Below the pieces are notes generated by a model. The model ran no database searches. It was not told the DNA's origin and worked only from the letters and a program-made list of their open reading frames with translations. A stretch of 64,000 nucleotides of DNA from Nymphaea colorata. Taxonomy: Eukaryota > Streptophyta > Magnoliopsida > Nymphaeales > Nymphaeaceae. The translations under genes and the position numbers were made by a program. Numbering within the stretch: the stretch's first letter is position 1; the number at the start of each line of letters is the position of its first letter. Shown here one piece after another: positions 32,434 to 61,710 of the stretch. The DNA lies in contig NC_045139.1 of assembly GCF_008831285.2 (NCBI RefSeq), positions 24,036,412 to 24,100,411 of the forward strand, written 5' to 3'.

Positions 32434-32435
<2 letters not shown>

Positions 32436-33280: not shown

Positions 33281-33286
33281 TATAAA
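33281..33286 (+). promoter_or_regulatory. TATA-like box fused to the K1 start codon
   Basis: TATAAATGG at 33281-33289 forms a good plant TATA box whose last A is the first base of the ATG at 33286. If it acts as a TATA box, transcription would start about 30 bases inside the ORF and the first ATG would not be in the mRNA. In K2 and K4 the TATA-like box lies 93-97 bases before the start codon. Confidence 0.5.
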
Positions 33287-33717
33287 TGGCCGCTAGTAGC
33301 CCCTCCGGCACCTTAACGTGCGCAGGGACGGCCTACCCCACATGCTCCCCTCCCGTTTCTTCCTCCACTGCCGCTCTTCTTACCCTCAACGACTTCAGCG
33401 AAGGTGGTGATGGCGGCGGCCCTTCGGAGTGCGATGAATCTTACCATGCAAACACCGAGAGAGTGGTGGTGCTGTCGATCGGGTGGTACGCCGGAGGCAG
33501 CCGGTGTGGGAAGATGATTAACATCACGGCAAGCAATGGGAGGAAGATGACGGTGAAAGTGGTGGACGAGTGCGACTCGAGGAACGGGTGCGACCCTGGG
33601 CACGCCGGGCAGCCACCATGTAGGAACAATATCGTCGATGGGTCCAAGGCTGTGTGGGAGGCTCTCGGCCTCAACCAAGATCTGGGCGTCGTTCCAATAA
33701 CCTGGTCCATGGCTTAA
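33286..33717 (+). CDS. K1, kiwellin-like protein without signal peptide
   Basis: 143-residue ORF of the kiwellin / ripening-related protein family, cysteine-rich plant proteins with a double-psi beta-barrel related to barwin and expansin folds. Some kiwellins bind and inhibit secreted chorismate mutase of a fungal pathogen. Hallmarks in order: [45 protein letters not shown] (about residues 40-54), [51 protein letters not shown] and VPITWSMA at the C-terminus. The family usually has about 190-220 residues with a signal peptide and an N-terminal Cys-rich module; both are missing here. The ORF begins at the point where that module should end. AATAAA poly(A) signals follow at 33749 and near 33775. 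It is the only undamaged kiwellin frame in the window. It may be an expressed truncated gene or a fragment that happens to stay open. GC-rich codon use stands out from the surroundings. Confidence 0.65.
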
Positions 33718-33840
33718 CTTTAATACAGTCCTACTCCTTGCCAAGTTGAATAAATGTACCACCTTCGGTCTGAAAAATAAATGGCAACCTGAGAAGGAAA
33801 GTTAAATAAATGGCTTAACTTTGATACAATTCTACTATTT
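33709..33840. repeat. Direct repeat of the K1 3' end
   Basis: ATGGCTTAACTTTxATACAx plus TCTACT occurs at the K1 stop codon and again about 101 bases downstream (33810). It is a small tandem duplication covering the last codons and the start of the 3' UTR. Confidence 0.75.
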
Positions 33841-34124
33841 CCAAAGTTAAATATTATTTGATATGTAGTAATATCTTTAGTTTTGTGGGTGCTACTGTTG
33901 TGGGGCTGTCAATACCATTTGAAAGGTACAACATACTCCACCCAAGTAATTGTTAACCTTTTGCTCGTACAAGAATGTTGCACATTTTATGAGTTTCTTG
34001 TCGATGGTAATTGTTGCAGTTATTTTCATATTCATAGTTTTGACATTGAGTTTCAGGAGATACACAAGCTCCCTTCAACCACCACCAAAAAACTTGTGAA
34101 TCTTTGTGTTGGATAAAAATAAAT

Positions 34125-37100
34125 TCATAAGGTAAAAGAAATGAGATTGAGAAGCATGGTTATGTTAATTAATTTCTTACAATTTACAATGCCGAGACCA
34201 GAATTTGCACAAATAAACATATGAAAAGAAGATTCATGTGTATAGCCTTCCATGCTTTAATTAATTTTCAAAGCCATCTCCGCTACTTTTCTATTCTTGA
34301 ATCAGAGGTCAGACTGTGTTTTTAGTTAAAATTGACAATTTCCTCAGGCAAATGTATACGATAATTTCAAAAGCTGAAGATAATTTCAAAAGGCAGAGTC
34401 ATTCTTTTCATCATTTTTGCAAGCAAAAAGCAGCCAAGAAATTATAGGCATTTGATTTTCAATACTTTGCACATTTTAGTTTTCTCTTCAAACATTGAAC
34501 TTCCTTTCCATATTTAAGTTGCAATCTAGAATGTTTTACTGCACGAATACTTGTGGATTCAGTAGAGTTTGGTAGTTTTCTTCATAATGCGAGTAGCCAT
34601 AGTGTCTAATTTGGGTGACTTTCAAGTTGTTTGCTATGCTAGTGATCGTGGGATCATCAGAAAGGTTTGAAGCCGTAAGTTCATTAATTTGAAAGTATGA
34701 GTTTTTGTTATATCCTGTTAAAAGTATAAAAATCAATGCTCAATAAGAAATAAGCTTGTTTTGGAGTTTCAATTTCATTTTCTGTTTATAAATATAAACA
34801 AAACAGGGGATCAACAGGCTCAACCCTAACTTATTACTATAAAATTTAGAATTCTTGGCTGAAAATGGTTTTCTAAGAAGGTTTTCTCGACAGAGAGATA
34901 TGGAATGGTACTGAGGACCAATGGTACTGAGGACCAACCCCACTGCATTGTTCTTTTTTTCTTATAATCTCAGGCCAAATGCAGTCTTTACATCAGTGCT
35001 TTTTGTTGTTTCTCATTCTAATAGTTTTAAATCTTGTAGGTTTACTAAGCAATTGCCAATTTGAAATCTTGTTTGGATTGCAACTCACTCCAAAGCTTAT
35101 CCATATTCTTTGATGTTTCTGAACAGTTTTAACAATTCTATCATTCTAGTTAATGCACTAAATTATATATTTTTTTAACATGACAACATTTTTCTGAGTA
35201 ACCAAGATGCATAATTTTAGTGCATGATCAGGAAGGAGGTATTTTATCTAAATGTGTCGAGGGAGGGACTCTTATGTGTAGGTTACTATTTTTCTCTGAT
35301 GGCAGGGCCTCGCTAGATTTCCACTATCAATAAATGTTTTGTTGCTCATATTCTCCAAGAATCAATTCTAAAATGTGTGATCTTCTGTCTTCTTTCAAAT
35401 ATTCCTACAAACTAATAGAAAGGTCTCCATACTGTCATAGGATCATGCAGGCTTTCTTGGTTGGAAACTTGGAGAGCAGATAATTGTCGAGAAGGCATCA
35501 ACACTAGGCTCTTCTTCAAGGAACATTTACAACATCAATTGTGTGTACAAATTCAAGTTTTTTTTTTTGTCAGGATCATGGTCAAAAGTGGTTATTGGAA
35601 GCTACAAGATGGTGTTTTATTTTCTTTTGTCATTAAAATTTGTTGTTCTTTTTTGTGCATTTGAGCGATATTTGATTATTGGTTGTTATCTAGCTTTTGT
35701 TTTGTTTTTGTATTTGCTTATGTCGCAAAGAAGGCTGACTTGTCATTTTCCCAATGGCGTCATGCTTACATATTTTTCAAATTTGTTTGATGCTACAATT
35801 TGCAAAATTGCTAAATAAATTCTCATATTATTTTATGATGATTTTCATCCCAGCTGTTTTTATTTTGTAGGATTTTTCAATTGCTAGGTACTCTAGTGTT
35901 TTTGTCATTAACAGTATCCAACAATTTAGGTAAATCCAATGAACTCCCAATTCCAGAATCTTAATTTCCTTAATTCAAACAAAAAAATTTCAATTCTAGA
36001 ATCAAAATTCCGAGTTATAGGTAAAATTTTGGTTCCATAATTTTAGATTTTTTTAGAATTGGATGGAATTGAAATAGAGATTGATAAGGCCGAATTTGTG
36101 GAACTGTAAAATTAAAATTCTCATTATTGATGAAGTGGAAATTGCATTATCAAACAAATAATTTTCATTCCAGAATTATAGTATCATTCTTGGATCAAAA
36201 TTTCGGAATTGTTACTTTACCTTGCGGGTGGACTTATTATTTCAAAATTTTTTCATCTCTCAGTATTAGGACATATGTTATGATCGTTTTAATTCATCAG
36301 TTCTAGAATTTTAATTCATGTTTTATCACTCTTGTCATTTTCAATTCTGAAATCAAAATTACATTCTATCAAACACAAAAGGAAACTAGAACTAGAATTT
36401 TCATTCCAATTCCAATTTTGAGGTGGAATTTTGTTTCTAGAATTTTAAATGTAGAACCAAAATTCAAGGCCGTCAAACACATGTCAGTAACATAGACTTA
36501 CAATTCCATTCTTCTTGAAAAACTAGAAATAGAAAGTTGAAAACAAAAAAGAACTAACTTCCAATGGTAAGAACAAAATTGACCTGGTTCGGCTCCAGGT
36601 CTCAAGGGAAAATTTCCTGACAAACATAGTAAGGAACAGCATTTTCTTGCTGATTTCAAAAGGAAATCATGTTTATGAATCAAAAGTACATCATACTCTC
36701 ATGAAGAAACTGGGGAAAAAAATTTAAAGAACAAAATTAGAAACCCAAACTTTAGATAGACATTAAAAGGTAAAATATTTAATAGACATTCCATGTGGCC
36801 TTTAAACATTGGAGTGTTACTGATTAGCACTCTCGTTTATGTGCGTTAACTTCTTGATGCTGAAACAGGGTTGGTCAAATCTGATGCATCTCTTGGTCTT
36901 CATGTGACTGATTAATGTGCAACAGAAAATAATAGTAACAAAAAATTATCATTTATATATGGATGTCTAATGTTTTAGTTATACGTAAATTATGTCCATG
37001 CACGCATACAACAGAGCTTATAAAGGAAGGGAAAAAGATGAACATGTTTTAATTGACTTTGCTAGTGACAAAGTAGACCATCAAACGAGTACTTTATCCA

Positions 37101-37549
37101 ATGGAGCAGATTTCTATCTCTTAAAAGAAAAAAGCAACTTGTTAATGGGACAACCCTCGGTTGAACATAAGTGGACCACCTGCCCACCGTGCTGCAAGAC
37201 CTTGAAAACCAAGTCTTCCTAGTCAAGATTACAAGCCTCTGTGTTCATATATTGGTTCTTCCTTTCCAACAACCCCATATTCATGCCATTCGTGCCACAT
37301 TCTTCCACACAGCAAGCTCTTATCAGCGCCTTTCGAAAATTTCCTTCCAACTTGCTTAAAAGAGAGGAGATTTTTTCCACACATTGAATACCAGAGGAAA
37401 CAAAAATCTTGACTTTAAAATTTCTTCTAACAAATAGCGTGACCATCCTCCTTATAATGATGCCTTTTCTACTCACTGGCTAAGAGCACCACCTCCCCCT
37501 CTTCCTCCCTTGATGGGATAATCAAACAGCAGCTGGGCTAGCTAGCCCC
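34125..37549. repeat. Duplication block B: S module, long form
   Basis: Collinear with D (55405-61054, apart from D-specific insertions). Marks: AAAAGAAATGAGATTGAGAA, GGGATCATCAGAAAGGTTTG, AAGAAGGCTGACTTGTCATT, GGAAATCATGTTTATG and ACCACCTGCCCACCGTGCT. Minus-strand ORFs at 34536 and 36498 have counterparts in D at 56712 and 59001 but no recognisable motif. I treat the module as upstream non-coding DNA of K2. Confidence 0.8.
37453..37458 (+). promoter_or_regulatory. Candidate TATA box of K2
   Basis: CTTATAATG, about 97 bases upstream of the K2 start codon. The paralogous site in K4 reads CTTATAAATG (60957-60962). Confidence 0.45.
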
Positions 37550-37848
37550 ATGTGAGCGGCAGCATCTTTCATAAACCTTCTTCTTGCTCTTCTTTCCTTT
37601 CTCCTGATCTGCCTCTTTCCTTCAACCCTCGCTAGCTCTGCCTGCAATGGCTCTTGCAACAACTACGAGGACTGCGAAGGGCAACTTACCTGCACCAGCG
37701 GGTGACGCACCGACGATCTGGACGCCGGCACTCACATCTATACTGGTGCAGGATCACCTTCGAAGGATGGTGGTTGGATGGTGGTTGTAATCCGACTGGA
37801 TCAATGACATGCAATGGGATGAACTACCCCACTTACACATGTTCTCCT
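37550..37848 (+). pseudogene. K2, kiwellin pseudogene cut by copia-3
   Basis: N-terminal half of a kiwellin: signal peptide region (SFINLLLALLSFLLICLFPS), Cys module (CNGSCNNYEDCEGQLTC) and part of the next segment up to the YPTYTCSP motif (37826-37848). The start ATG at 37550 is followed directly by TGA (GCA in K3). A second stop TGA at 37703 replaces the CGA of K4, and the next Cys codon is CGC. The remaining 3' half is missing because the sequence jumps at 37849 into LTR-like DNA of copia-3. Confidence 0.85.
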
Positions 37849-37916
37849 TGTATAAGAGGAAGAAAAAAATGAAAAAAATGAACAGAATTTTTTAACGTGG
37901 TTCAGAATTTTTTTCT

Positions 37917-38273
37917 AAGTATGCCCTTAACACCTCATCTTTTCCAATGGAACCCTCCCATTACTCCATTGCTCTTAAACACTCGGGTTGGCATCAAGCT
38001 TGAAAGATGAGATGGCTGCTTTACAGGCTAATCATACTTGGGATCTTGTGCCTTGAGCCTTTCAAGATGCCCATCTCCTTTTGGTTTAGTTTTGAAAACC
38101 CAATGGCTACCGATCACCTGCATGTCTGAAGTTCGAGGCACAAGACCCCAAGCGTGATTAGCCTGTAAAGCAACCATCTCATGTTTCATAGCTTGATCCC
38201 AACCCGAGTGTTTAAGCGCAATGGACTAATGGTTGGGTTCCGTTGGAATAGATGAGGTGTTAAGGGCATACTT
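37917..38273. repeat. Inverted repeat (fold-back) in copia-3
   Basis: Left arm 37917-38053 and right arm 38136-38273 are reverse complements over about 137 bases with roughly a dozen differences. They are separated by an 82-bp spacer. Both arms encode the RT start segment GW.QA...EM.ALQANH, on opposite strands. Confidence 0.85.
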
Positions 38274-38758
38274 GGGATTAGGTTTGACAATGCCAGATTT
38301 GGATCGAGTAGCCATTGGATGAGTAGATGAGGAAGAGGATGTCGGTGAGGCTAGTGATGGAACCAGTTGGGCTAATTGGCAAGGTAATGGTGGGTTTGAT
38401 ATTTCTTTTTGGAGCTCATTAGGTGGGTCTTCGGAATTATGCATTTGTGCTAGATGTTGAGACTCTAAATGGTCGTCATTTGAAGAGTATGAAAATGATA
38501 CAAAATCAGCATTAGCGGATATTGCCCTAGAGGTTGGCATGGTAGTTTGGTAGGGAAAAATGTTTTCATCAATTACAACATGCCAAGAGATGTATACCCG
38601 CCCAGTTGAAGGATAAAGGCATCTACATCCCTTATGATGATTGGTATAGCTAGCAAACACACATGGTAGAGACTTGGGTTGAAATTTATGATTTGTATAA
38701 CCCTGAATATAAAGATAACATCCATATCCAAAGGTGCAAAGACAACAAGAAGGCTGTT
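38055..38758 (-). pseudogene. Second copia lineage joined to copia-3 (IN C-terminus, RT start)
   Basis: Minus strand reads CTFGYGCYLYIQGYTNHKFQ, CRCLYPSTGRVYISWHVVID and the linker HPMATRSKSGIVKPNPKYAL, then RT start GWDQAMKHEMVALQANHAWG and VIGSHWVFKTKPKGDGHLER. This repeats the IN C-terminus and linker already present at 38770-39250, but in a clearly different sequence. It stops where the inverted arm begins. Confidence 0.75.
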
Positions 38759-40887
38759 GAAAAGGAGGATTTTGGTCTTCTTGTGCCATCTTGTGAGCGG
38801 GTGGTCATGCTATGAGTTCGAAGTGGAGGCATGGCTGGAGGTGGAGGAATGGCTGAGTCGTCTAGTGTGGGAGGTGGAGCTGGAGTAGGAGGTGAGTCAT
38901 GGGTAGAAGTGGTTTGAGATGATGGTGGTGGGTGATTTGAGAGGGAGTTGGTTGTGGTAGGAAGCATAGGTAAAAAAATGGGTAGTGGTATGTTGGTACT
39001 ATGGGGATCATGAAGTGGTTTTGGTTGTTCATGAAATAGAAAATCTGACTCATTGAAAACATTTTGGATGACGATGATTTTGGAATTGTTGAGGTTGTAA
39101 CAAAGATAACCCTTGTGAACATTTGAGTATCCAAGAAAGGCGTGTTTGGAGGACTTAGGTTGAATCTTGTGTTGATGATAAGGTTGTAAGTTTGGGTATG
39201 CGGCACAACCAAACACTCGCAAGAACTTATAATTTGGAGGTTTTTGGTATAAAGTTTCAAACAGAGACTTCCCTTTGAGACCTGTTGTAGGAACACGGTT
39301 CAATACATATGTTGCTATGCTGAATGCATAAGTCTAGAATTCTACTGGAATGCCTCCATGATTAAGATGAGAGAGACCTGTTTCAACAATGGTGCAATGC
39401 TTCCTTTCAGTTGTGTCATTCTGTTCATGTGTATGAGGGCAGAAAATTTTTCTTTCGATACCATGATCTTGAAAGAATTTGTTGAGAGCGGCATACTCAC
39501 CACCACCGTCAGATTGAAAAAATTTAATTTTTGAATCAAAGATATTTTTGACTTTCACCTTGAACGCTTTAAAGGCCTTTTCAACATCAGACTTATATGT
39601 CAGAAAATAAATCCATGTATACTTCGAGTATTCATCTATAAAGCAGACATAATATCGATATCTATCTTTGCTAATCATGGGTGCAGGACCCCATAGATCC
39701 GAGTGAACCACTTCAAGTGGTTTAGTAGCATTGTGATCAAACAGAGTAAATGGAAGAGCATGTGATTTTCCAAATTGACAAGCATCACAAAAGTTATTGT
39801 TTTTGACATCACTCTCAAAAGGGAGTTTAAATTGTCTCAAAATAAAATGAACATTATTCAAGGCTATGTGTCTAAGTCTAGCATGCCATCTACTAATAGT
39901 AGTCTGTTCTCCATAGAGTGCCACCTTCTTAGTTTGATGTTGATTACTTTCTGGTTGTTGGAGTTGGAGACGATAGAGACCATTGTTACTCCTTCCTTGT
40001 AGGATCACCACCCCTATATGTTGGTCCTTCACCACACAATGATTTGCAGAAAATTCAGACACAACTTGATTATCTTTGCAGAATTTATTCACAGATAACA
40101 GATTATGAACCATTTTTGGAGCATGAAGAATATCTCGCAGAGCAACAGTAGATTTAGGAAGATGAAAAAGAGCTGACCCAATGTTTTGAATACACACACT
40201 TGATCCGTCCCCAACCTTAATAGTGTCGTTGCCTTCATAAGGTTCATGAATTGTCATCGATCCAAGAGAGTTGATGATGTGATGAGTTGCTCCTCTGTCA
40301 GGGATCCAATTTGCAACATCTAACATTTGAGGAGATGAGTGATATACCTGAGAATTTGAGGATGATGATGTATTCGAGATGGTAGTTGCTGCTGCGGTGT
40401 GATCTTTCCTTGCTATTTTAAAGTAATTCTTGGCACTGTGGCCCATTTTATCACAAAACTGACAGATAATACGTTTTCTTCCATTGTAATCAGATCTGCC
40501 ATGTCCGAAATCAGATCTGCCTCGGCCTTGACCACGACCTCTATGCAGCGTTGAGGGCTGTCTAAAATTTTCCCTTCCTGCTGAATATGGTTGGGCATAA
40601 TGCGCGGCAAGAGCAAACGTATCATGCTCAAGATTTTGTTCTTTAAGTTGTGTTTCTTGTGTGAGAAGGAGGCCATGTGGATCACTGAGAGATATCGGAT
40701 CTACATGAGGGGTCAGAGATGTTTTGAAGGCTGAGTATTCACGAGGAAGTCCTCTTAGGATATGCATAATTAAATCTTCCTCTTTTACTGGTTTTGAATC
40801 AACAACGAGTTGGTGAGCCAACATCTTGGCTTTATAGAAATAATCGTCCATAGTTAAGTTTCCTTTCCTTAGTCTAAGCTTGTGCAT
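38686..40887 (-). pseudogene. copia-3 gag-PR-IN portion
   Basis: Minus-strand frame beginning inside gag (MHKLRLRKGNLTMDDYFYKA). CCHC-like knuckle CQFCDKMGHSAKNYF has Tyr where the last Cys should be. Protease active site reads WIPDRGATHHI; the family has DSG or DTG, so Ser is replaced by Arg. Integrase shows WHARLRHIALNN, CDACQFGKSHALPF, VVHSDLWGPAP, FIDEYSKYTW and a glutamate region changed to EQNDTTERKH. A TAG stop at 39334 replaces the expected Trp codon. The frame continues as LNRVPTTGLKGKSLFETLYQ and FGCAAYPNLQPYHQHKIQPK to the linker HSMTTRSQDGTRRPK, where the second lineage begins. Confidence 0.85.
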
Positions 40888-41556: not shown

Positions 41557-41661
41557 ATGGCAGCGGCAGCATCTTTCCTATTCCCCGCTCTTCTTTCCCT
41601 TCTCCTGATCCTCTCACCATCAACCCTTGCTTTCTCCTCCTCCTGCAATGGCCCTCGCAGC

Positions 41662-41970
41662 TGTTAGGGAAAGAGATGACAAACCGTGTGAAGCATTAAG
41701 GAAAGAGGCAATCAAGGATTACTGCGTGGAGAAATAAGGGAAGAAATGAAGATTGGCAATCAAGGAATTGCCGTGTGAAGATTTATCCGAGCGAAGGAAG
41801 ATTCTCAAATGTTGTAACTCCTTATCATATGTATAGCAGCCTCCTCACGTTGTATTAGTTACCATATCTATACCAGCCGTGTAAACATTATAAATAGGAT
41901 GAAAACTCTTACAAAAAAATAACAGTAAGAGAATTACTCACTTGCCTGCGTCATCTTCTTATTTCTTTCA
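41662..41970 (+). repeat. 5' LTR of copia-4
   Basis: 309 bp from TGTTAGGGAAAG to TTATTTCTTTCA. Contains a TATA-like box in ACATTATAAATAGG (about 41886-41899), the likely core promoter of the element. Confidence 0.9.
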
Positions 41971-41972
41971 TA

Positions 41973-41985
41973 TGGTATCAGAGCC
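41973..41985 (+). promoter_or_regulatory. Primer-binding site of copia-4
   Basis: TGGTATCAGAGCC, complementary to initiator Met-tRNA, two bases after the LTR end. Confidence 0.9.
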
Positions 41986-42504
41986 ACAGTGCGTGGTTGT
42001 TGGTGCTCCTCAAATTCACCTAGTGCCCTTTGTTCAGACATAGTTCTTTTGAGTGTTCCCATTTACCTGCACATGAACACAGGTATCAACCTTCGTTGGT
42101 CCTCACACTGCTCAGGAAACATCTCTTGCTTGTTGCGGTTCCAAAGAGACTATTCTTGCCCAAAACAGTCACCTGAGCCGGCTGAAACCTTCCATTTTCT
42201 TGCCGCCTCTCCTGCTGGGTCTTCTTCTATGAAACAGGGAAAAACTGCCGCCCCTCCCGCTGGGTCTTCTTATGTGAAACAGGGAAAACAGGGGAAACTA
42301 CCTTTCGTCTTTAACACCAGTGCTGTCTTCTTGTTCATCGAATCCCCTCGAGGTTGCACAGGAAGCATCGCTAAGGAGTCTTCTTTCCGACGGACTGGTG
42401 CTTGACCGGACTCAGTGCTGGAGTTGGCCGGAATCTCGTGATTTCCGGTTGCATATTTGTGGATCCTCTGTTCAGCGTAAAAAAAAAAGGGGAAAACGCC
42501 TGCT

Positions 42505-42800
42505 CGCCTTCGTTCGTGCGCTACTGCTCGCCTCCTTTTTCCTCAGCGTCTATCTCCCTCGCCCGTGCGCTACCGCTCGCCTCCTTCCCGTTGCGCTATC
42601 TCCTTCGCCCGTGCGCTACTGCTCGGTTCTTTTCCGCGCACCACCAAAAAGCGTTCTCTCTCTCTCTCTTGCCAGGACCTCGAGTGCTCGGTCGGTGCTG
42701 TCTATCTCTGGCGCTATTTTAAAAGGTGCACGCTCTCTCGACCTCGAGCGCTCGGTCTTCATCACCTGAAGGCTCTCTCTCTCTCTCTCTCTAGCGTGGT
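42505..42800 (+). repeat. Tandem repeats in copia-4 leader
   Basis: The motif CGTGCGCTACxGCTCGCCTC or close variants occurs three times between about 42515 and 42635. A second motif, ACCTCGAGxGCTCGGTC, occurs twice (about 42677 and 42740). Both are followed or preceded by CT dinucleotide runs (42655-42670, 42773-42793). This GC- and CT-rich block lies between PBS and gag. Confidence 0.8.
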
Positions 42801-42891
42801 GCTGTCTTTGAAAGGTGCGCTCTCTCCCTCTTTGACGAAGGAGACATTGCCGACTCCCGATTCCTTGGAAATCTGTATTTTTGGTAGTGCC

Positions 42892-45800
42892 ATGGCTGCC
42901 ACCATGCCTATCCAATGGAATGCTACTGCTGCACTAATTTCGGTCAAACTCAACCGAGATAACTACTTGTTATGGCGAAGTCAGCTGGAGTCAGTAATGG
43001 ACTCTCAAGATCTTCTTCAATTTGTTGATGGGACTTAAGTCGAACCACCGAAAGAGATAATGAAGGTTGGCAAAACTGAAGTGAATCTAGAATTTGTTGC
43101 GTGGAAAAAGATGGATCGTCTTGCATTAAGCTGGATCAAGACAATGGTCACGGAAGCTGTGTTAGGGCAGATTATGCGAGCCAAAACTGCCTATGATGCT
43201 TGGTCGACCCTTGAAAAATCTTATGGTTCTCAGTCTCCTTTGAGAATCACGTTGTTGCGAAAGGAGTTGCTTCTTATCAAGAAGGGAAGTATGTCTATGC
43301 AAGCTTATTTAGATCAAATCAGATTTCTTTCAGATACTTTATCTACTGCTGGTCACGAAATTTCTGATCAGGATTTAGTACAAGTCACGCTTAATGGATT
43401 ACCATCGAATATGAAAGTTTTATAACCATGCTTACTGGTCCATCATCATCAAACCTTTCATTTTCTGAACTTTTTGATCTTCTGCTCAATCAAGAAAAAC
43501 GGCTTGCCCTACTTAAGTCGACTTCAATGAACTCGACTGCATTTGTTCAGCCAGCAACGCAGGTTGTCAACCACACTGCATTCAATGTTTTTCGTGGGCA
43601 ACGCCGAGGCCGAGGATTTTTCCATGGTCGAGGAGGAAGAAATCAAGGTGGTCGTGGAAATCAATTTCAGGGACGTGGAAATCGGCCTCAGTCACAAATG
43701 CAACATGGTACGGCCAATTCACAATACCAACATCCTCCAATTGTTTGCCAATATTGTGGACGAAAGGGGCGCTCAGCTCGCACGTGCTACGACATTCCAC
43801 AGGCCTACTCTGCCATGAGTTTGCAGGACTCATTAAATGAATACTGGTACCCAGATACAGGGGCTACAAACCATATTGTAGCAAGTGATGATATGATGCA
43901 CAACAAAGCTCCTCAGGGTGGACAAGAGAACGTCATGATTGGTAATGGCCCTCGTCTTTCTATTAAACATATTGGTGATCTATTAGTTGATGTTGATGGG
44001 AATTCTTTTAAACTGAAGAATACTCTTCACGTCCCCACTATTGCTCATAATTTGCTATCAGTCGGAAAATTTACTACTGATAATGACTGTATTTTTGAGT
44101 TCTCACCGTATGAATTTGTGATCAAGGATCGACGAACAAACAAGATTCTTCTTCGGGGACCAAAGAAGCGTAATGGACTCTATCCCATTGCGCTTAAGCG
44201 AGCTAAGGAGAATCAAGAAAGAGCCTCCTTCAGCAGTTGGTTTTCACGTCACAATAATGCAGCCTCATATGAATTATGGCATCGCCGGTTAGGACATGCA
44301 AATACAAGGATTGTGAATCTTTTAAATACTAGTTGCTTGATTTCAATAAATTCCTCATCTCGAAAAGAGATCTGTGAATCATGTCTTATTGGCAAAATGC
44401 ATAAACAACCATTTCCTTCTTCTGATTTTCATGCTTCTCGAGTTCTTGAAGTTTTGCACATGGACGTTTGGGGACCGGCTCCTGTACTCTCCAAGGATGG
44501 TTTCAAATATTTTCTTCTAATAGTTGACAATTTTTCTCGCTACTCATGGTTATTTTCTTTAAAGACAAAATCCGAAGTGGTTGACTGTGTTTGCAATTTT
44601 AAGGTCCTGGTAGAAAATCAATTAAGTTCTAAAATTGCCACCATTCAATCAGACAATGGAGGAGAATTTTGCAACAAGGTGTTGGAGTCATTCTGTGAAG
44701 CAAATGGAATTCTTCATCGTTTTTCATGTCCCTATACGCCTGAGCAAAATGGCATAGTGGAAAGGAAAAATAGACACATTGCGGAAATCGGTTTGAGTAT
44801 GATATATGACTCTGGCCTCGATTATAAGTTTTGGAATGAATCTTTCAGGATTGCAGTATATATTATTAATCGGCTCCCGACTCTCAAGCTTAAACGCAAG
44901 ACTCCTTTTCAATTGGTGTTTGACAAGGTGCCTGATTATACTCATCTACGAGTTTTTGGGTCCATATGTTATCCACTGCTTTCTCTATCAAACAACACCA
45001 AATTCCAATCAAAGACCACTTGGTGCATTTTTCTTGGCTATGCAAGCAGACACAAAGGGTATATATGTTATGATACTACACTTCAAAAGACTCTTATTTC
45101 CCGACATGTCATTTTTTATGAAAGCTTGCATATTGGGCAATCACCAACAACTTTTAATTCTTCTTTGTGGACACCCATGGCTCAAATTGATCAATGTACG
45201 TTCGATCTTGAACATAGCAACTCTCACAACATGAGCCCTTCACTAGTAGAGCCAACATATCAAGATCATCCTCTTTCATTAGTCAATCCTGCATCATCAC
45301 CATCTCATCACCAAAGTTCTTTTGTGCCACACGTTGTTGAACTACCAGCCTCTCAGTCAGACATGTCCATATCTCCTTTACAACCAAACCCTTTGTCACT
45401 GGTAGATAATCTTCCACACACACACGAGGCTGAAAATGAAGCAATACAAGAACTTGCTGAAAGCTCATCTCGACCAGCTCAACATACTCATCCTATGGTA
45501 ACCAGGTCGATGACCGGTTCCTTGATACCAAAAACTTTTTGTGCTATGTTGGATCAAAAGGAACCGTCCTCCTTTAGAGAAGCAATTAAGCATGGTGACT
45601 GGCAGCAAGCAATGAAACATGAGATCAATGCACTCAAAGAAAATAAAATGTGGCGACTCATTCCCCCACGTCCTGATCTTCATGTCATTAGCTCAAAATG
45701 GGTGTACAAGATCAAACGGAACGTTGATGGAACCATAGCTAGACATAAGGCACGTCTTGTTGCTCGTGGTTTCCTTCAAAAAGAAAGCATCGACTACTTG

Positions 45801-47042
45801 GAAACATTCAGTCCAACAATAAAACCCACTACTATTAGGGTTTTACTTTCCTTAGCCATACAATATGGGTGGCCTCTTCGTCAACTTGATTTTGACAATA
45901 CTTTTCTTAATGGCTACCTTCATGAAGATGTTTATATGACTCAACCTGAAGGATTTGAAGATCAAGAACATCCTACTTATGTATACAAACTGGAAAAAGC
46001 TATCTATGGCCTCAAACAAGCACCACGAGCGTGGTATCATCGACTCAGTTGTCATCTTCAGAAGTTTGGTTTCTTCATCTCACAATCGGATGCGTCACTG
46101 TTTATCTACTCCAAAGTCAAAGATAACCTTTACATACTTGTTTACGTAGATGACAAAATTGTTACTGGCTCATCTCCGTCTCTTATTGATTGGGTTGTTC
46201 GACAACTCCAGGATACATTTTCAGTAAAAGATATGGGATTCTTATCGTACTTTCTCGGGATTGAAGTCAAAAGGACAACACACTCATTATATCTATGCCA
46301 ACATTCTTATATCACCAACATCATCAAACGTACCAATATGGCTAGGGCTAAGCCTACTGTTTCACCGATGAGTACTAGTAAAGACAAAGTGTCATCTCCG
46401 ACGTCATTTGATGATCATTCATTGTATCGAAGTGTGGTAGGGGCATTACAATGTGCAACCCTTACTAGACCTGATATAGCGTTTGCTGTTAATCGATCAT
46501 GTCAATTCATGCACTCTCCTACAATGAATCATTGGATCATGGTGAAGAGAATCCTGTGATACTTGAGTGGCACCAGTCACTATGCTTTGCACTTCAGAAC
46601 ATCGTCAACATTACAACTCTGCGCTTATGCAGATGCCGATTGGGCAGGAAGTCCAGAAGACCGAAAATCTACAGGTGGATTTGTTGTATTCCTAGGAGAA
46701 AATATCATATCTTGGGCTTCTAGAAAACAAAGAACTGTAGCCCGATCTAGCACTGAAGCGGAATACAAATCCCTGGCATGTGCAGCTGCTGAACTGCTTT
46801 GGTTAAAAGCTCTTCTCAAAGAATTAGGGATAAATTCCTCATCTTCACCTGTTCTTTGGTGTGACAACATTGGAGCATTATACCTTGCAGCTAATCCAGT
46901 CTTTCATGCTAGAACTAAACATGTGGAAGTGGATTTTCACTTTGTTCGAGATCATGTCAATCAAGGAAATATCCAAGTTAAATTCATACGATCCGCTGAG
47001 CAAGTGGCTGATGGAATGACGAAAGCTCTCAGCACTGGTTAA
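42892..47042 (+). pseudogene. copia-4 gag-pol, nearly intact
   Basis: Gag starts at ATG 42892 (MAATMPIQWNATAALISVKL). Stop TAA at 43036 replaces an expected CAA. A one-base loss near 43412 shifts gag into the pol frame. From 43428 a 1,043-codon frame carries the knuckle CQYCGRKGRSARTC (Arg replaces the His of CCHC), protease WYPDTGATNHI, integrase (WHRRLGHANTRI, CESCLIGKMH, MDVWGPAP, IQSDNGGEF, TPEQNGIVERKNRH), RT (KWVYKIKRNVDGT, GLKQAPRAWY, YVDDKIVTG) and RNase H up to MVKRIL. Then TGA (46557, for CGA) and the frame goes on with [29 protein letters not shown] and ARTKHVEVDFHFVRDHV to TAA at 47040 (for CAA). It resembles Ale/Retrofit-type copia by gag and RNase H, from memory. Confidence 0.9.
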
Positions 47043-47086
47043 TTCCAATCGTTTCGAGACAAGCTAAACGTGGTTGATCCAACGTT

Positions 47087-47335
47087 CAAGGAAAGAGGCA
47101 ATCAAGGATTACCGTGTGGAGAAATAAGGGAAGAAATGAAGATTGGCAATCAAGGAATTGCCGTGTGAAGATTTATCCCAGCGAAGGAAGATTCTCAAAT
47201 GTTGTAACTCCTTACCATATGTATAGCGGCCTCGTCACGTTGTATCTAGTTACCATATCTATACCAGCCGTGTAAACATTATAAATAGGATGAAAACTCT
47301 TACAAAAAAATAACAGTAAGAGAATTACTCACTTG
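47087..47335 (+). repeat. Partial 3' LTR of copia-4
   Basis: Matches 41697-41944 of the 5' LTR with few differences and contains the same TATA-like box. Both ends are missing. The left deletion joins the integrity-losing tail of pol (LNVVDPT) to LTR position ~36. Confidence 0.9.
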
Positions 47336-48003
47336 AAGGGCAGCTGATCTGCACCACGGGCAATGCAGCGATGAACCCAATGTTGGCACTCACATCTGAC
47401 GGGATCCTGTCCCAAACAACTTTTTCTGCTTTGCTGAAAAGAAATCAGAGTTGATTTTGGTTTTAAATTTTACATATCTTACGTTGCTTACCAGCTTACC
47501 TTACTGTTTGTCGATATTTCAATACAACTTTTATTGAGGTTGAGTTTGGTTCCTTCCTCATTTCGAAGGATGATGGTTGTAATCTCCTACCGGATCAATG
47601 ATGTGCAATGGGGTGAACTACCCCACTTACACATGTTCTCCTCGCATTTCTTCCTCCACGGACATCATCCTCACAGTGAACAACTTCAGTCGAGGTGGAG
47701 ACGGAGGTGGGCCATCGGAGTGCGATCAGTCCTACCAAGATAACACAGAGCAGGTGGTGGCTCTGTCAACCAGGTGATGTCTCCGACCGCCGCCAGTGTT
47801 TTCAAACGATTTGCATCACCATCGCTGATGGGAAGAGCACAACGGCAAAGGTGGTGAGCGTGTGCGATTCGAGGAATGGTTGTGACGCAGAGCATGCTGG
47901 GCAGCAACCATGTAGGAATAACATCGTCGATGGATAGTCTGGAACGCGCTTGGGCTCAGTACAGACGTTGGAGAGGTGCACGTTACTTGGTCCATGTCCT
48001 AAG

Positions 48004-48885
48004 TAACTTGCCGCCTAATAGGACGCATACTTGCATATTTTTGGCGTGTGGCATGTATTGAACTGTTACAATAAGCGGCTTCTTATCTGTTTAGTGGATC
48101 ATCGTTCCAACTTTTACTAGGAAATCAAATATGGCTTTGTGGAATTTGCTTCAATATGCCAGGTGAAAGTAATTCACATGAAAGTAAATTGGCTTCCATA
48201 ATAAAGTTCTAGAGTACTATATAGAACAAGATCGTATAATTTCAGGTCCTTAGAAATAAAGTTCTAGTGTACCATATGGAACATGATCATCCAATCAGAA
48301 GCAAGATTAGAGTTTTCAAAAATGGCATACCAAAATCTCAACTCCTCTACTATATGGCAAGAAGGAAGATATTCTTTGAGCAATTGACTATGTGTTGCTT
48401 CGCTTTTTGTGGAACTATGCCTATTCCGGCAATGTATTGTGGGATATAATATATAGTAGCTAAAATTAAGCTGTAAACATCGAAGCCAAGTGTCCTTTCC
48501 AAGAGTTTGAATTACCTTTCTAGGCAGATAAGGGATTTTATTTAACAAAATTAATTCAGTTGTTCCTCTCTCCCTCCCTTTTCAAGGCCATTTTTGGATT
48601 ATTAAAAAATATCTTACCTTTTATATTTGAAACTTAATTTCCACCATCAAAGTCTTTGAAATTGACAACACTAGACTTGATTGAAATAATCTAGTTGTAG
48701 ACTTCAAGGAGGTCAAATGGTAGAAATTTAGCTGCCGTCAACATAGAAGTCGCGTCTTTTGAAGAATCTGAATTACATCTTAAAGAAGACCAGAGGATTT
48801 ATTTAACAAAATTAATTCGCTTCTCTCTCTCTTTGTCTCTTTCTCTGCTTCCTCTTAAGCGGGCACATTGCATTATTGAAAAAAC

Positions 48886-48926
<41 letters not shown>

Positions 48927-50560
48927 GTTTGTAACTTAATCTCTAGTGTCTAATATCGTTGAAATCAACAGCCCAAATGACTCCTGTAAAAGTATGCTCG
49001 CAGCGGCCGGCCTGGTGGGATGCCCAGGTATCCATTTTGTTGACTGGCCTAGGGACCAAGTCAATTTGGTTGACTTGACTGGGTTTTCAAACACTAGGTT
49101 AGAGAAAGGGAGGGGGAGATACGTGTTGCTTGTCAAAGGGAATGGAGTCTACAACGATCTCCTTCTCCTCTCTTGGCGATCTACCAGCCTCAATGCAAGT
49201 TACTGGGCACACTAAGAAGAGGGAGGAGAGGGGGAGAAATAAAACATGAAAGAATCCCTCCGCCTAGAGTTGACATTTAAATGCACATAAATTTCATACC
49301 CCAGCATGTCCCCACTACTCTATAATCTGCAGACATGGGCGTGTTTTCATCCCCACCCGTCGAATGAGGAGTCGCGCGCGAATCAGCAAAATTGGAGCTT
49401 TGTTTAAATATATATTTTAGGAGAGAGGGAGCTACCCATCGATACGAGGATCAACTGTTCCTGCCACCATTAACATGAGTGATCGATCCAAGGTCTAGAT
49501 TTCTCAAGCCTGACAAGTTACTTTTTGCACATGTTTGTGCAAGGAATGGATTTTGGACTTTTAAAGTTCATTTTGAACAAAGATTTGGATCTTGTTTAGA
49601 ATTTTTTTTGTATTTCAGGAACTTTAAAGATCTAGAAATTGTCCTTGGAATAGGATTGTCGAATTAATCCCAGATTTTGGTAGTTGAACTCTAACAATTT
49701 TGATTTGATCCCAAAAATTGGAACTTTGAATTGGGAAACTGACAGTTTGAAATTTGGATTTTAACTAGAATTGAGGAATGCGTAATTAAAGTCTAGCTAG
49801 GCTTTTTTATAATGTAATTTTAGAGTTGATTGGGTGCTAAAGATTAGAGACTGGATTTGAGAATTTGGGTTACGAATTGACTTGACCTTAGGAAGTTTGA
49901 AAATAACTTTGGTTTGGATTTTTGAGACTTGAACATGGTTTTGAAGATAATTGGCATTTTGAGAGTTTTGGAGAAGCTTGATTCTATTTGGTTGGTTTTC
50001 CTTCTAAAATGGGAATTGGAAGTTGGGAATCCAAGTTTAGTTCTTAGTTTTTGAATTCTGATTTTGGGACCGACTGAGGTTGGGAACTTTGTAAAATTTG
50101 CTTGGTTACCGATAGAAATAGACTTGGGAGATTTGACCTGATCAACTTTGACTCAGATTTTGGTTATGATTTGGTAATTTTGGAAATCTAGAAATATTCT
50201 TGGTATTGGAGCCAGCATTTTGATTTACCTTCAAGGTTGAGTTTAAAGAATTTTGGACGTTCGTTAGGCTCTAAGATTTTTAAGAAGAGGCGATTTTGGA
50301 GTCCTGAAATTTTTAAGACTTTGGTCGTGGTCATGAAAATTTGCTTGATTTAAGTACATTTTGGACTAAAAATTGATTTCAAGATGAATTTGATTTTGAG
50401 AGAAATCCAATCATGGAATCCAATTGCAATCGATTTTGAAAATTTTAGTTTTGCAGCCATTTTATGTTTTCACGTCAAAATAAGTGAGGTGCGCAAGTTT
50501 TTGTGCAATATGACTTAGTCATGGCAGAGACTCTAACTTAAGTCCCATAGATCTTGGAGA
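48004..50560. repeat. Block C post-K module
   Basis: Collinear with 61710-64000 (TTTAGTGGATCATCGTT, TGGAACATGATCATCCAATC, GAGGAGTCGCGCGCGAATCA, GGCATTTTGAGAGTTTTGGA). Contains a 37-base T run (48888-48924) that is short in D. No coding motif. The 62-codon ORF at 49479 has a relative in D at 63056, but T/G-rich composition explains it. Confidence 0.85.

Positions 50561-53244: not shown

Positions 53245-53277
<33 letters not shown>
53245..53277. repeat. (AT)n microsatellite
   Basis: About 16 AT units. Confidence 0.95.
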
Positions 53278-53280
<3 letters not shown>

Positions 53281-53667: not shown

Positions 53668-53779
53668 CTTCTCTCCAACAGGGCTGCCACTGGCGGTGGG
53701 TGGTGGAGTTTGATGTAAAAAAAATCAATCAAGGCATCTATGTGAAAGTAAATGAATGGCCTTGGTTTGAATAACAGTT

Positions 53780-53783
<4 letters not shown>

Positions 53784-53838
<55 letters not shown>
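53784..53838. repeat. (AT)n microsatellite
   Basis: About 27 AT units. The B copy has a shorter CA/TA tract at about 31547-31570. Confidence 0.95.
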
Positions 53839-53840
<2 letters not shown>

Positions 53841-54112
53841 CAGGTTAGGAAAAAAATTTCACAAGTTCAACTAGATCTGCAATCTTAACCATCCATCTTA
53901 ATGATAGACAATAGAAAGTATGATGATCAAGTAATTGCAGTTGCAATAGAAAATGACTTGAGAGAAGGTCAGATTCATTTTGCTAAATGCTGAACAATTG
54001 TAATCACATTCTTAATCAAACTGTGTTAGATGCGTCTGTAAGTGGAAAAAGTTTCCATAAAGCAACTTTAAACCTTTCTCAACATTTTAAAGCCAATTAA
54101 AACATTTGGTAA

Positions 54113-56700: not shown

Positions 56701-59654
56701 GCATTTACTTTTTAATAATTGGCACATTTTAAGTTTTCACTAGGAGCATTGGACTTCCTTTCCATATTTAAGTTGCAAGCTAGAATGTTTTGCTGTACGA
56801 ATGCTCGTTGTGGATTCCATAAAGTTTGGCTGTTTCCTTTATAATGCAAGTAGCCATAGTGTCTAACTTGGGTGATTTTCAAGTTTTCTGCTATGCTATT
56901 GATCGTGGGATCATCAGGAAGGTTTGAAGCCATAAGTTCACTAAGTTGAAAATATGGGTTTTTGTTATATCCTATTAAAAGTATAAAAGCCAATGCTAAA
57001 TAAGGAATAAAATTGTTTTGGAGTTTAAACTTCATTTTTTCTTTATAAATATGAACAAAATAGGGGACCAGCAGGCTCAACCCTAACTTATTACTATGAA
57101 ATCTGGAATTTTAGGCTGCAAACGGTTTTCTATGATGGTTTTTTTCGATAACAAGATGATGGAATGGTACTGGGGATCGACCCCACCAGCCACCACATTG
57201 TTCTTTCTTTCTTATCATCTCAGATCACTGCTGGTTGACATTCATGATGAAAGAAACACAACCTGAAGTGAATTTGAAAGGACTGCCAACGTAACCCATA
57301 TAAAATGAACTTCTTAATTGCTTGTTGCAGATGAAACAGTGTTCGTGTAGTATTCTTAGGAAGCATTTTATATGGACAAACACCAAGAGTAATAGAAGCT
57401 TCTACATTATGATTTGCAATTTATAGAGAAATCTCTTCACTTAACATCTCACCAACCAAAAGATGCACCACATTTATGTCTTCTCCTTCCCCTAAAGGTC
57501 GTTTGGCTAATGGAAAAGTTGCATACTATTCCCTGAACCTGCCCTGATGACAGGTACAGTAATATTGGTTGTTTTTCGTTCTTCTACTTTTAAATGACCT
57601 AAACTTCTTGTTGGTTTACTAAGCAATTACCAATTTCAACTCTTATTTGGACTGCAACTTACTCCAAAGGTTGTCCATATTCTCTGATGTTTCTGAACAT
57701 TTTTAACAATTCTATTATTCTAGTTAAGGCACTAAATTATATCTTTTTGACGTGACAACATTTTACTGCATGGTCAAGAAGGATCTATTTTATCTAAATA
57801 TATTGAGAGAGGGACTCTTATAAGTAGGTTACTATTATTCTGAGATGGGATGGCTCCACTAGACTTCCACTATCAATAAATATGTTTTGTAGCTCAAATT
57901 CTCCAAGAATCAATTCTAAAATGTGTGATCTGCTATCTTTTTTCAAATTTTCATTCAAGCCAATACAATGACGAGGTCTCCATTCTGTCACAAGATAATG
58001 CGGGCCTTCTCGGTTGGAAACTTGAAAGCAGATAATTGTTAAGGCATCAACACTAGGCTCTTCTTCAAGGGACATTAACAGCATCAATTGTGTGTACAGG
58101 TTCAAGTTTTTTGTTAAGATCATGGTCAAAAGTGGTTATTGTAAGCTACAAGATGGAGTTTTATTTTCTTTTGTCATTATAATTTGTTATTCTTTTTTGT
58201 GCATTTGAGCGATATTTTATTATAGCATTTTGTTTTGGTATTTGCTTCTGTCGCAAAGAAGGCTGACTTGTCATTTTCCCAATGGTGTCACACTTACATT
58301 TTTTTAAAATTTGTTTGATGCTATAACTTCCAAAATTGCTAAATAAATCCTCATATTATTTTATGATTGTTTTCATCCCAACTGTTTTTATTTTGTTGGA
58401 TTATTCAATTGCTAGGTGTTGTTGTGTTTTTATCATTAGAAGTATCCAACAATTTAGGTAAATCCAATGAACTCCCAGAATTTTAATTCCCTTAATTCAA
58501 ACAAGGCATTTTCAATTTTAGAATCAAAATTTCAAGTTACAGGTAAAATTTTGGATTCAGAATTTTAGATTTTTTTAGAATTGGATGGAATTGAAATCAA
58601 GATTGATAAGGCCGAAATTGTGGAATTTTAAAATTAAGATTCTCATTATTGATGAAGTGAAAATTGTGTTATCAAACAAATAATTTTCATTCCAAAATTA
58701 TGGTATCATTCTTGAATCAAAGTTTCGGAATTGTTATTTTACCCTTGGGGTGGACTTATGATTTCAGAATTTTTTTCTCTCATTATTAGGGCATATGTTA
58801 TGATGGTTTTAATTCATCAGTTATATAATTTTAATTCATGTTTTATCAAACATGTCATTTTCAATTATGAAGTCAAAATTTCATTTTATCAAACAGAAAA
58901 GAAACTAGAACTAGAATTTTCATTCCAATTCCAATTTTGAAGTGTAGTTTTAAGTCAAACCAAAATTCAAGGCTATCGAACACAAGTTAGTAACATAGAC
59001 TTACGATTCCATTCTTCTCGAAAAACTGGAAATACAAAGTTGAAAACAAAAAAGAACTAACTTGCATTGGCAGGAACAAAATTGACATGGTCTTGCTCCA
59101 GGTCTGAAGGGGAAATTTCTTGACAAACATAGTAAGGAACAACATTTTCTTGCTGATTTCAAAGGGAAATCATGTTTATGCATGAAACGTACATCATACG
59201 CTCATGAAGAAACTGGGAAAAAAAATTAAAGAACAAAATTAGAAAACCAAACTTTCGATAGACATTAAAAGGTAACTTATTTAATAGACATTCCATGTGG
59301 CCTTTCAACATTGGAGTGGTATTGATTAGCACTCTGGTTTAGGTGTGTTTACTTCTTTGATGCTGGAACAGGGTTGGTCGAATTTGATGCATCTCTTGGT
59401 CTTCACGTGACTGCCTAATGTGGAACAGAAAATACTAGTAACAAAAATTTATCATTTATATATAGATGTCTAATGTTTTAGTTATTTGTAGATTACGTCC
59501 ATGCACCCATACAGCAGACCTTATAAAGGATTGGAAAAAGATGAACATGTTTGAATTGACTTTGCGGAGACAAATTAGGCCATTGAACGAGTACTTTATC
59601 CAATGGAGCAGATCTCTAGCTATTAAAAGAAAAAAAAAAAACAACTATGAGGAA

Positions 59655-60660
59655 GTTGGGCCGTGGCTGGTTAATTAATTACCATATAATTGAAATAAAA
59701 CATTTCCTTTTCAAAAATGTAATTTTTTTTTTCAAATTAAAATCCGACAGGTCCCAGTCAGAGCGTGTTTTAAACGGAGCCAAAGCCAAAAAATTCTGAT
59801 TTAGGGCAATAGTATTTAAGTTTGAGATTTTTAAGATGCTGCAATATAGTTCTTGACATCTTGTGAGCAACTGCCCACACATATGCCCTAAATGAAGTGA
59901 AATTTTTAAGATTTTTAAGTTGGAGATTTTTAAGATGCTCCGATATAGTATTTAAACAACTTCCTAGAATTGCAATAGATTTACTACAAAATTTAAACGG
60001 GGCCAAAGCCTAAAAAATAGCCACGACATGCCAACTTAAAAAGAAATATTTTTTTGTGTCCGTGTGAGCAACTGCCCACACATAGCCCACAGGCTACATC
60101 GTCGACTCTTCTGGCCTTCAACATTTAATCAGACCTTTTTTTCTCTGATAGAAATTATCAACGACATGTCTTATATAGGGAGGAGTTGGTTAAGGAAGGA
60201 AACTATGGTGAAATTTCACCAGAATGGATCGTTTCGCTGACAATGACTAGGGCAAGATGTCGTTAGGTGCAGGAAACCTACAAGCACTTGATGCCCACAA
60301 ATTGAATTGCACCAAATATCAAGCCACAGTAACCACAAAATGTTGTTAGAATCATCCTAAAAGGAATTTGAATCTGCTGCCGTTTCCATGGCCGAATCAA
60401 GCGGTCAGACTTTAATTATATTTAGGAAGATACTCTAAGAATATTTATATTTTTAGTTAATGTATATATGTTGTAGTAAATATTTCTTAATATTTTTACA
60501 ACATTCGAATGGTGGATGGCGAAGCATTTTTTTTTCCTTTTTAAGGATAGTGGTTCATTCCACCACTCCTAAGGTCACTATCTCTTGTACTAATTACTTT
60601 TACACAGCTTGCTTGAGACTTATTAGAAATTAGAAAAAGAAAGCATTAAGACTGAAGTGA
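59655..60660. other. About 1-kb insert specific to D
   Basis: In block B, the CTCTTAAAAGAAAAAAGCAAC region runs within a few bases into GGGACAACCCTCGGTTGAAC (37120-37165). In D the corresponding points lie 1 kb apart. The insert contains an internal repeat (TTTAAACGGxGCCAAAGCC at about 59769 and 59992; GATTTTTAAGATGCTxCxAT at about 59825 and 59925). TGAGCAACTGCCCACA occurs twice. No ORF or clear termini. Confidence 0.55.
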
Positions 60661-60956
60661 CTGGGACAACGTAGGTCGAACACAAGAGGACCACCTGCCC
60701 ACCGTGCTACAAGCCCTTGAAAACCAAGTCTTCCAAGTCAAGATTACAAGTCTCCCCGTTCATATATTGGGTCTTCCTTTTCAACAACCATATTCACGGC
60801 ATTCATGCCACATTCTTCCACACGGCAAGCTCTTATCAGAGCCTTTTGTAAATTTCATTCCAACTTGCTTAGAAGATAGGAGAATTTTTCTATACCAGCT
60901 GAAACAGAAATCGTGACTTTCATATTTCTTCAAACAGATAGCGCGACCATCCTCCT

Positions 60957-60962
60957 TATAAA
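60957..60962 (+). promoter_or_regulatory. Candidate TATA box of K4
   Basis: CTTATAAATG, 93 bases before the position of the lost start codon. The sequence and distance agree with K2. Confidence 0.45.
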
Positions 60963-61054
60963 TGTGTCTTTTTCTAGGCACCGGCTAAAAGCACCACCTC
61001 CCCTTCTTCCTCCCTCGACGGGATAAACTAACGGCAGCTGGGCTAGCAAGCCCC

Positions 61055-61710
61055 ATCGCAGCGGCAGCATCTTTCCTAAACCCTCTTCTTACTTTTCTTT
61101 CCCTTCTCCTGATCTGCCTCTCCCCTTCAACCGTCGCTAGCTCCTCCTGCAATGCCCCTTGCAACAACTACGACGACTGTGAAGGGAAGCTTACCTGCAC
61201 CAACGGGCGATGCACCGACGATCCGGACGTCGGCACTCACATCTGTACTGGTGCAGGATCGCGTTCGAAGGATGATGGTTGTAATCCGACCGGATCAATG
61301 ATGTGCAATGGGGTGAACTACCCCCCACTTACACATGTTCTCCTCCCATTTCTTCCTCCACAGACGCCATCCTCACGGTGAACAACTTCAGTCGAGGTGG
61401 AGACGGCGGTGGGCCATCGGAGTGCGATCAGTCCTACCATGACAACACGGAGCAGGTGGTGGCTCTGTCAACCTGGTGGTTCGACCACCGCCGCCTGTGT
61501 TTTCAAATGATTCGCATCACCACCGAGATGGGAAGAGCACAAGGGCGAAGGTGGTGGACGAGTGTGATTCCAGGAATGGTTGTGACGCTGAGCATGCTGG
61601 GCACCAACCCTGTAGGAATAACATCGTCGATGGATCCGCTGCCATCTGGAACGCGCTTGGGCTCAATACAGACGTTGGAGAGGTGCACGTTACTTGGTCC
61701 ATGGCCTAAG
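61055..61710 (+). pseudogene. K4, full-length kiwellin pseudogene
   Basis: The whole kiwellin layout is present: signal peptide region (FLNPLLTFLSLLLICLSPST), Cys module (CNAPCNNYDDCEGKLTC, CTDDPDVGTHIC), [92 protein letters not shown] and HVTWSMA before the stop at 61707. It is broken three times: the start codon is ATC (ATG in K3), two extra C in the C run near 61321 shift the frame, and a second shift lies near 61520-61535. The DPBB region also departs from K1 (W-W-F-D-H-R-R in place of GWYAGGS). The core promoter region looks intact, so a non-coding transcript is possible. Confidence 0.9.

What the first reader, a model, noticed from the sequence alone, without database searches (positions are those of the whole stretch)
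33281..61710. Kiwellin gene cluster in which nearly every copy is disabled by a different lesion
Seen: five kiwellin loci (K5 stub 15718, K1 33286, K2 37550, K3 41557/47334, K4 61055). K5 is deleted after 16 bases. K2 has a stop at codon 2, another stop, and a copia breakpoint. K3 is split by a retrotransposon and frameshifted. K4 has ATC for ATG and two frameshifts. Only K1 keeps an open frame, without a secretion signal. Family knowledge: kiwellins are secreted, pathogen-facing proteins that expand and decay quickly. Inference: independent losses after duplication, as in birth-and-death evolution of defence genes.
Basis: partly seen in the sequence, partly recalled or inferred. Interest (0 to 1): 0.75.

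Follow-up and report, generated by a model that had tools for sequence, protein, structure and literature searches.

The report
Decayed kiwellin array beside living twin
A run of duplicated plant defence (kiwellin) genes has been wrecked almost completely on one chromosome while its sister run on another chromosome still holds intact-looking copies; comparing the two helps to tell older, shared damage from newer damage, but the process itself is ordinary gene birth and death.

Summary
The lesions are real. The window's kiwellins form a tandem array of A- and B-type genes on contig C2, largely collinear with an array on C12; all 15 whole-genome Pfam KWL1 matches lie in these two. In the window 0 of 6 positions is an intact full-length gene. 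One full-length copy lies 4 kb past the window (C2) and four on C12.

"Independent losses" holds in part. K5's deletion junction recurs on C12, so it most likely predates the C2/C12 split; the copia beside it came later (5-bp target duplication, empty site on C12). K3 and K5 share a join that removed the promoter. K3 is probably a chimera. K1, K2, K4 and the deleted A copy carry lesions not seen in their C12 partners.

K1, the "open" copy, is doubtful: a ~250-bp deletion removed start, signal and kissper, and its ATG lies inside the TATA-box motif of its paralogs. Its substitutions still look constrained (7 N:10 S), so recent death or residual use remains possible.

Verdict: well-resolved birth-and-death; instructive, not new in kind.

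The parts
15671..15737 (+). K5: 5'UTR and first 16 coding bases of a B-type kiwellin, joined directly to flank that in L007 lies about 2.4 kb downstream of the start
   Evidence: Same junction at C12:10597.36 kb; 2 of 11 genome matches span it
15784..20987 (-). copia-type element inserted later, 47 bp past the K5 deletion junction; target duplication GCTTT at 15779-15783 and 20988-20992; LTRs 94.8% identical (291 columns)
   Evidence: (empty site on C12)
33281..33287 (+). TATAAAT motif, taken as the TATA box of the ancestral A-type promoter; K1's nominal ATG (33286-33288) overlaps it
   Evidence: same motif 57, 76 and 74 bp before the ATG in L002, L003, L004; box function inferred, not tested
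33286..33717 (+). K1: A-type kiwellin, 143 codons open; start, signal peptide and kissper removed by a deletion of about 240-260 bp (junction about 33292; an 18-bp repeat makes the size uncertain)
37550..37848 (+). K2: B-type kiwellin, stop at codon 2, second stop, 11-bp frameshift insertion, rest lost at a copia-type fragment, TATA motif altered
37849..40873 (-). truncated copia-type fragment where the rest of K2 and its downstream flank would be
41557..41661 (+). K3 5' piece (K5-like lineage, promoter region missing)
41662..47333 (+). copia-type element inside K3 (borders read by eye), LTR stretches 97.2% identical, no target duplication seen
47334..48004 (+). K3 3' piece; from 47562 it groups with K4 and L007; a 163-bp insert of unknown origin at 47399-47561; frameshifts and stop
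54104..54112 (+). junction where an A-type copy (counterpart of window 31845-34128, 2.3 kb) is inferred to have been deleted, at a GGTAA microhomology
61055..61709 (+). K4: B-type kiwellin, ATG to ATC, +2 and -1 frameshifts, Gly to Trp in the core

Best explanation
The window holds 6 of the 7 positions seen in the C2 arm of a duplicated kissper-kiwellin tandem array. A unit with one A-type and one B-type gene was amplified in tandem, the array exists in two largely collinear versions (C2 and C12), and the C2 version has lost its genes by ordinary mutation: small and large deletions, frameshifts, stops and retrotransposon insertions. One loss (K5) most likely predates the C2/C12 split, and the promoter loss of the K3/K5 lineage predates the K3/K5 duplication; the losses of K1, K2, K4 and one deleted A copy came on the C2 side. 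Function is carried by five full-length open kissper-kiwellin genes (one on C2, four on C12). Shown: near-collinearity, lesions, the shared K5 junction, full-length relatives. Inferred: the order of events, that the full-length genes are expressed and act in defence as kiwellins do elsewhere, and that the decay is neutral.
For: Whole-genome KWL1 search: 15 matches, all in C2:24.070-24.105 Mb and C12:10.508-10.723 Mb. Matching blocks, mostly in the same order, at 79-98% from window 7148 to C2:24112.4 kb versus C12:10583-10681 kb (one search kept matches of 150 bases or more and left 12 of 113 rows, inside retrotransposons, unprinted). K5 junction on C12 and copia empty site there. Full-length open genes L002, L003, L005, L007, L008; L003 matches PDB kiwellin 4pmk over chain residues 1-189 of 189. 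Branch-private changes are neutral-like in K4 (13 N:3 S, one of the 13 being the lost start) and K3 (18:5) against 12:12 pooled in L002, L003 and L007, Fisher p 0.025.
Against: K1's private changes are 7 N:10 S, unlike K4 plus K3 (p 0.011) and like the full-length copies (p 0.75), so K1 may be alive or only lately dead. L004, dead by its frames, is 8:4 and was in neither pool. Collinearity is not perfect: L002's closest relative, L004, lies at the other end of the C12 array, and several blocks match more than one place. The shared K5 junction could also have spread by later exchange between the arrays. No expression data. Lesion calls rest on one assembly.
Confidence: 0.87

Rival explanations
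1. K1 is not dead: it makes a leaderless, kissper-less kiwellin core that stays in the cell, transcribed from a start site upstream of the old TATA motif.
For: Open frame of 143 codons; 7 N:10 S private changes, where 73% N is expected without constraint (binomial p 0.011); a kiwellin in nucleus and cytosol, GhKWL1, is reported in cotton (PMC8306359, passages seen).
Against: The ATG overlaps the TATA motif, so a transcript from the native promoter would be expected to begin after it, and the next in-frame ATG is codon 77. The coding part changed as much as its flanks, 15 of 376 versus 33 of 917 sites. After 15-20 substitutions a frame stays free of stops by chance in 53-62% of cases, indels not counted.
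Confidence: 0.1
2. The C2 and C12 arrays are divergent alleles of one locus, one of them misplaced in the assembly, so the 'dead arm' is one haplotype.
For: Best matching blocks reach 95-98%.
Against: No N in any fetched stretch; homology to the fetched C12 stretch stops at window 7148 inside gapless sequence, but window 4000-7100 is made of dispersed repeats (58 matches, best partner on C1 at 96%), so this edge may be a repeat insertion and is weak evidence; many blocks are only 79-90% alike and the arrangement differs; 1601 bases of C12's right end have no C2 match.
Confidence: 0.08
3. The lesions, above all those of K4, are assembly or polishing errors.
For: K4's +2 lies in a short C run; one assembly only.
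Against: K4 also has a start-codon substitution and 13 N:3 S private changes; K2, K3 and K5 carry large structural lesions; the K5 junction recurs on C12.
Confidence: 0.03

Closest known systems
Kissper-kiwellins (Kwl1 subfamily; Pfam PF24300 KWL1; PDB 4pmk, 4x9u)
   Same: The full-length relative L003 aligns with 4pmk over the whole 189-residue chain (E 6e-97); K1 aligns with residues 48-189 of it
   Different: In the window no copy keeps start, signal, kissper and core together
Clustered kiwellin genes of rice, chromosome 10
   Same: Clustering of kiwellins (PMC12672553, passages seen)
   Different: Those passages report no tandem or segmental duplication among its members, and 'pseudogen' occurs 0 times in its main text; here duplicates and wrecks are plain
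Birth-and-death evolution of plant resistance gene clusters (recalled, from no call)
   Same: Tandem amplification, unequal fate of copies, mosaics, transposons in dead copies
   Different: Here in kiwellins, with a sister array that helps to order the losses

Membership tests
Kiwellin (KWL1) | Pfam KWL1 core above its curated cut-off of 27 bits | tested here: met
   K1 167.7 bits, K4 piece 76.5 bits; K3 and K4 pieces over the cut-off. K2 and K5 have no core left and are placed by tblastn or blastn only
Kiwellin (KWL1) | secretion signal at the N terminus with a usable start | tested here: not met
   Region absent from K1 and K5; K2 and K4 keep the stretch without a usable frame or start; present by eye in L002, L003, L005, L007, L008. 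No signal predictor was on hand
Kissper-kiwellin | kissper module before the core | tested here: not met
   Lost in K1 and K5, interrupted in K3, kept in broken K2 and K4; met by L003
Decayed pseudogene | coding lesions and neutral pattern of change | tested here: met
   K2-K5 lesions; K4 13:3 and K3 18:5 N:S; K2 and K5 not counted. K1 inconclusive, 7:10
Birth-and-death gene family | tandem duplicates of mixed fate with losses on separate branches | tested here: met
   Five C2/C12 pairs: one shared loss, two lost on C2 only, two lost on both by different lesions
copia-type LTR retrotransposons | copia-type domains, LTRs, target duplication | tested here: met
   5 of 6 pieces searched match retrotransposon models: RVT_2 in 2, others gag, integrase or related models; the K5 element has LTRs and a 5-bp target duplication; none seen for the K3 and K2 elements

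The most novel reading that the evidence does not exclude
K1 is a newborn intracellular kiwellin: one deletion stripped signal and kissper and turned the TATA motif's ATG into a start codon, and the leaderless core is still expressed and kept by selection, a one-step route from a secreted to a cytosolic defence protein.
Probability: 0.08. Interest if true: 0.6.

Novelty: new member of a known kind. Interest (0 to 1): 0.3.

Why it matters
Two collinear kiwellin arrays in one genome, one nearly dead and one partly alive, let losses of defence genes be ordered lesion by lesion. They also warn that an open frame inside a pseudogene array (K1) can rest on a start codon that the native promoter would not be expected to transcribe; if so, a gene survey that counts K1 would overcount. 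Searches of the held papers for kiwellin with pseudogene and with birth-and-death each gave one paper, the same one, by its title about MADS genes (listings only).

Tried and rejected
Rejected: that copia insertion destroyed K5 (the deletion junction is on C12 without the element). Rejected as less probable: that K3 is simply one gene split by a transposon; its 5' piece falls outside a group holding K4 and L007 (96/96) while its 3' piece falls inside with them (99/98). The 5' piece is only 152 bp and its exact place has no support (38/0), so the chimera is probable, not proven. Rejected: that all wrecks are independent. Rejected as decisive: K1's N:S ratio, because its coding part changed as much as its flanks. 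Tried without result: naming the species. The genome (407.8 Mb, 783 contigs, contig numbers to at least C14) resembles in size the 409-Mb water lily assembly (PMC7015852, passages seen), but the scaffold counts differ (804 there) and nothing here identifies it. Not run: structure prediction, since no question turned on it. Never answered: a whole-genome search with the DNA right of L002 (L031).
Full report
WHERE. The window is C2:24036412-24100411 of a 407.8-Mb genome in 783 contigs. A whole-genome search with Pfam KWL1 gave 15 matches, all in C2:24.070-24.105 Mb and C12:10.508-10.723 Mb. Kiwellin remnants without a core (K2, K5 and several on C12) do not show in that search and were found by tblastn and blastn in the fetched DNA or by a junction search.

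ANATOMY. The window is a tandem array whose unit holds an A-type and a B-type kiwellin with spacer and downstream flank. Order on C2: K5 (B), K1 (A), K2 (B), K3 (B), a deleted A, K4 (B), then L002 (A) about 4 kb past the window end. Order on C12: L004 (A), a stub at 10597.3 kb (B), L003 (A), a 5' piece at 10611.3 kb (B), a broken copy at 10638.1 kb (A), L007, L008 and a decayed copy at 10662.6 kb (B), then L006, L005 and L029 (a third core type), with one more stub seen only as a search hit at 10718.35 kb. Full-length open frames: L002, L003, L005, L007, L008. That is 1 of 7 positions seen on C2 (0 of 6 in the window) and 4 of 12 seen on C12, counting the deleted A as a position. C12:10695-10713 and 10716.5-10720.5 kb, C2 beyond 24112.9 kb and C2 left of the window were not read base by base.

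TWO ARRAYS. Blocks from window 7148 to C2:24112.4 kb match C12:10583-10681 kb, mostly in order, at 79-98% (one search left 12 of 113 rows, inside retrotransposons, unprinted). The order is not perfect: L002 is closest to L004 at the far end of C12. Left of 7148 the homology to the fetched C12 stretch stops, but that left part is made of dispersed repeats, so the edge may be a repeat insertion. 1601 bases at the C12 right end match nothing else in the genome. No fetched DNA holds an N. A real duplication is favoured; two alleles are not excluded.

SHARED AND PRIVATE LESIONS. Five pairs can be read. (1) K5 and C12:10597.3 kb carry the same junction, 16 coding bases joined to flank that in L007 lies 2.4 kb from the start; of 11 genome matches to this stretch only these two span it: most simply one old loss, though later exchange between the arrays could also spread it. 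The copia element next to K5 sits 47 bp beyond the junction, is framed by GCTTT twice, and is absent from C12: a later event. (2) K1 lost its 5' end; its partner L003 is open and full-length. (3) K2 has a stop at codon 2, a second stop and an 11-bp insertion; its partner at C12:10611.3 kb lacks the codon-2 stop and is broken before the other two. (4) The A copy at 54.1 kb is gone, at a GGTAA microhomology; its partner at C12:10638.1 kb has a stop in the kissper and lost its core. (5) K4 has ATC, +2 and -1; its partner L007 is open and full-length. So: one shared loss, two losses on C2 only, two losses on both sides by different lesions. For K3 no C12 partner was recognised. K3's 5' piece shares with K5 the join of spacer to 5'UTR without the promoter, though the join itself differs by about 20 bp; in the C12 stub only the last 9 or so bases before the 5'UTR agree. 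Most simply, that lineage lost its promoter before K3 and K5 separated.

K3 IS PROBABLY A CHIMERA. The 5' piece (152 bp) falls outside a group holding K4 and L007 (support 96/96), while the 3' piece groups with K4 and L007 (99/98). The spacer before K3 is K5-like, 95.4% over 261 columns.

K1. In the three A relatives TATAAAT lies 57, 76 and 74 bp before the ATG, and the same motif stands before L005, L006, L007, L008 and K4, where the following bases vary; it is altered in K2 and in the copies at 10611 and 10662 kb. In K1 the deletion begins just after it, so the nominal ATG overlaps the motif. A transcript started about 30 bp downstream of a TATA box (general knowledge) would not hold it; the next in-frame ATG is codon 77. 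Against this, K1's private changes are 7 N:10 S, where 73% N is expected without constraint (p 0.011), unlike K4 plus K3 (31:8; p 0.011) and like L002, L003 and L007 pooled (12:12; p 0.75). L004, dead, is 8:4 and was in neither pool. But K1's coding part changed as much as its flanks, 15 of 376 against 33 of 917 sites. The fair reading is a recent death, with residual use not excluded.

FULL-LENGTH COPIES. L002-L003: dN 0.057, dS 0.183; L007-L008: dN 0.196, dS 0.429; in 10 of 10 pairs dN is below dS over the whole gene: purifying selection, weaker in the first 75 codons in these two pairs. No sign of positive selection over the whole gene.

LITERATURE. The family survey PMC9813671 (abstract, part 1 of the results section and passages seen) gives over 90% of kiwellins with a signal peptide and a median of five per genome; five full-length copies here fit. 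The tomato survey PMC11675693 found no tandem duplicates (passages seen). Searches for kiwellin with pseudogene, birth-and-death, gene conversion and Nymphaea gave 1, 1, 0 and 0 papers, the one being by its title about MADS genes (listings only).

VERDICT. It is an ordinary process, unusually well resolved.

Noticed in passing
L005 and L006 (C12:10713-10716 kb, 10692-10696 kb): Mosaic kiwellins: 5'UTR, signal and kissper of L005 are of the L007 type (first 75 codons dS 0.23) while the core is of a separate type (dS 1.19); best cut at alignment codon 65, 0 of 2000 shuffles reach it, against 63, 79, 67 and 884 of 1000 for four other pairs. L006 groups with L005 in both trees. Suggests exchange of the kissper module between paralogs.
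   Followed up: partly
window 49935-50544 versus about 63500-64000: The far downstream flanks of K3 and K4 are 98-100% alike while their genes are 89-95% alike: a recent conversion tract or partial duplication.
   Followed up: partly
window 47399-47561: 163-bp insert in K3; only chance-sized matches in the window or the 200 kb of C12.
   Followed up: partly
window 37917-38273: Imperfect palindrome (81.5% over 363 columns) at the K2 copia border.
   Followed up: no
window 556-3648: Another copia-type element at the left end, 66-69% like the K5 element.
   Followed up: no
C12:10638300-10644274: Repeat pair like LTRs (97.3% over 475 columns) in the 3' flank of the broken A copy.
   Followed up: no
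C12:10718351-10718423: One more kiwellin 5' stub, seen only as a search hit (85%).
   Followed up: no
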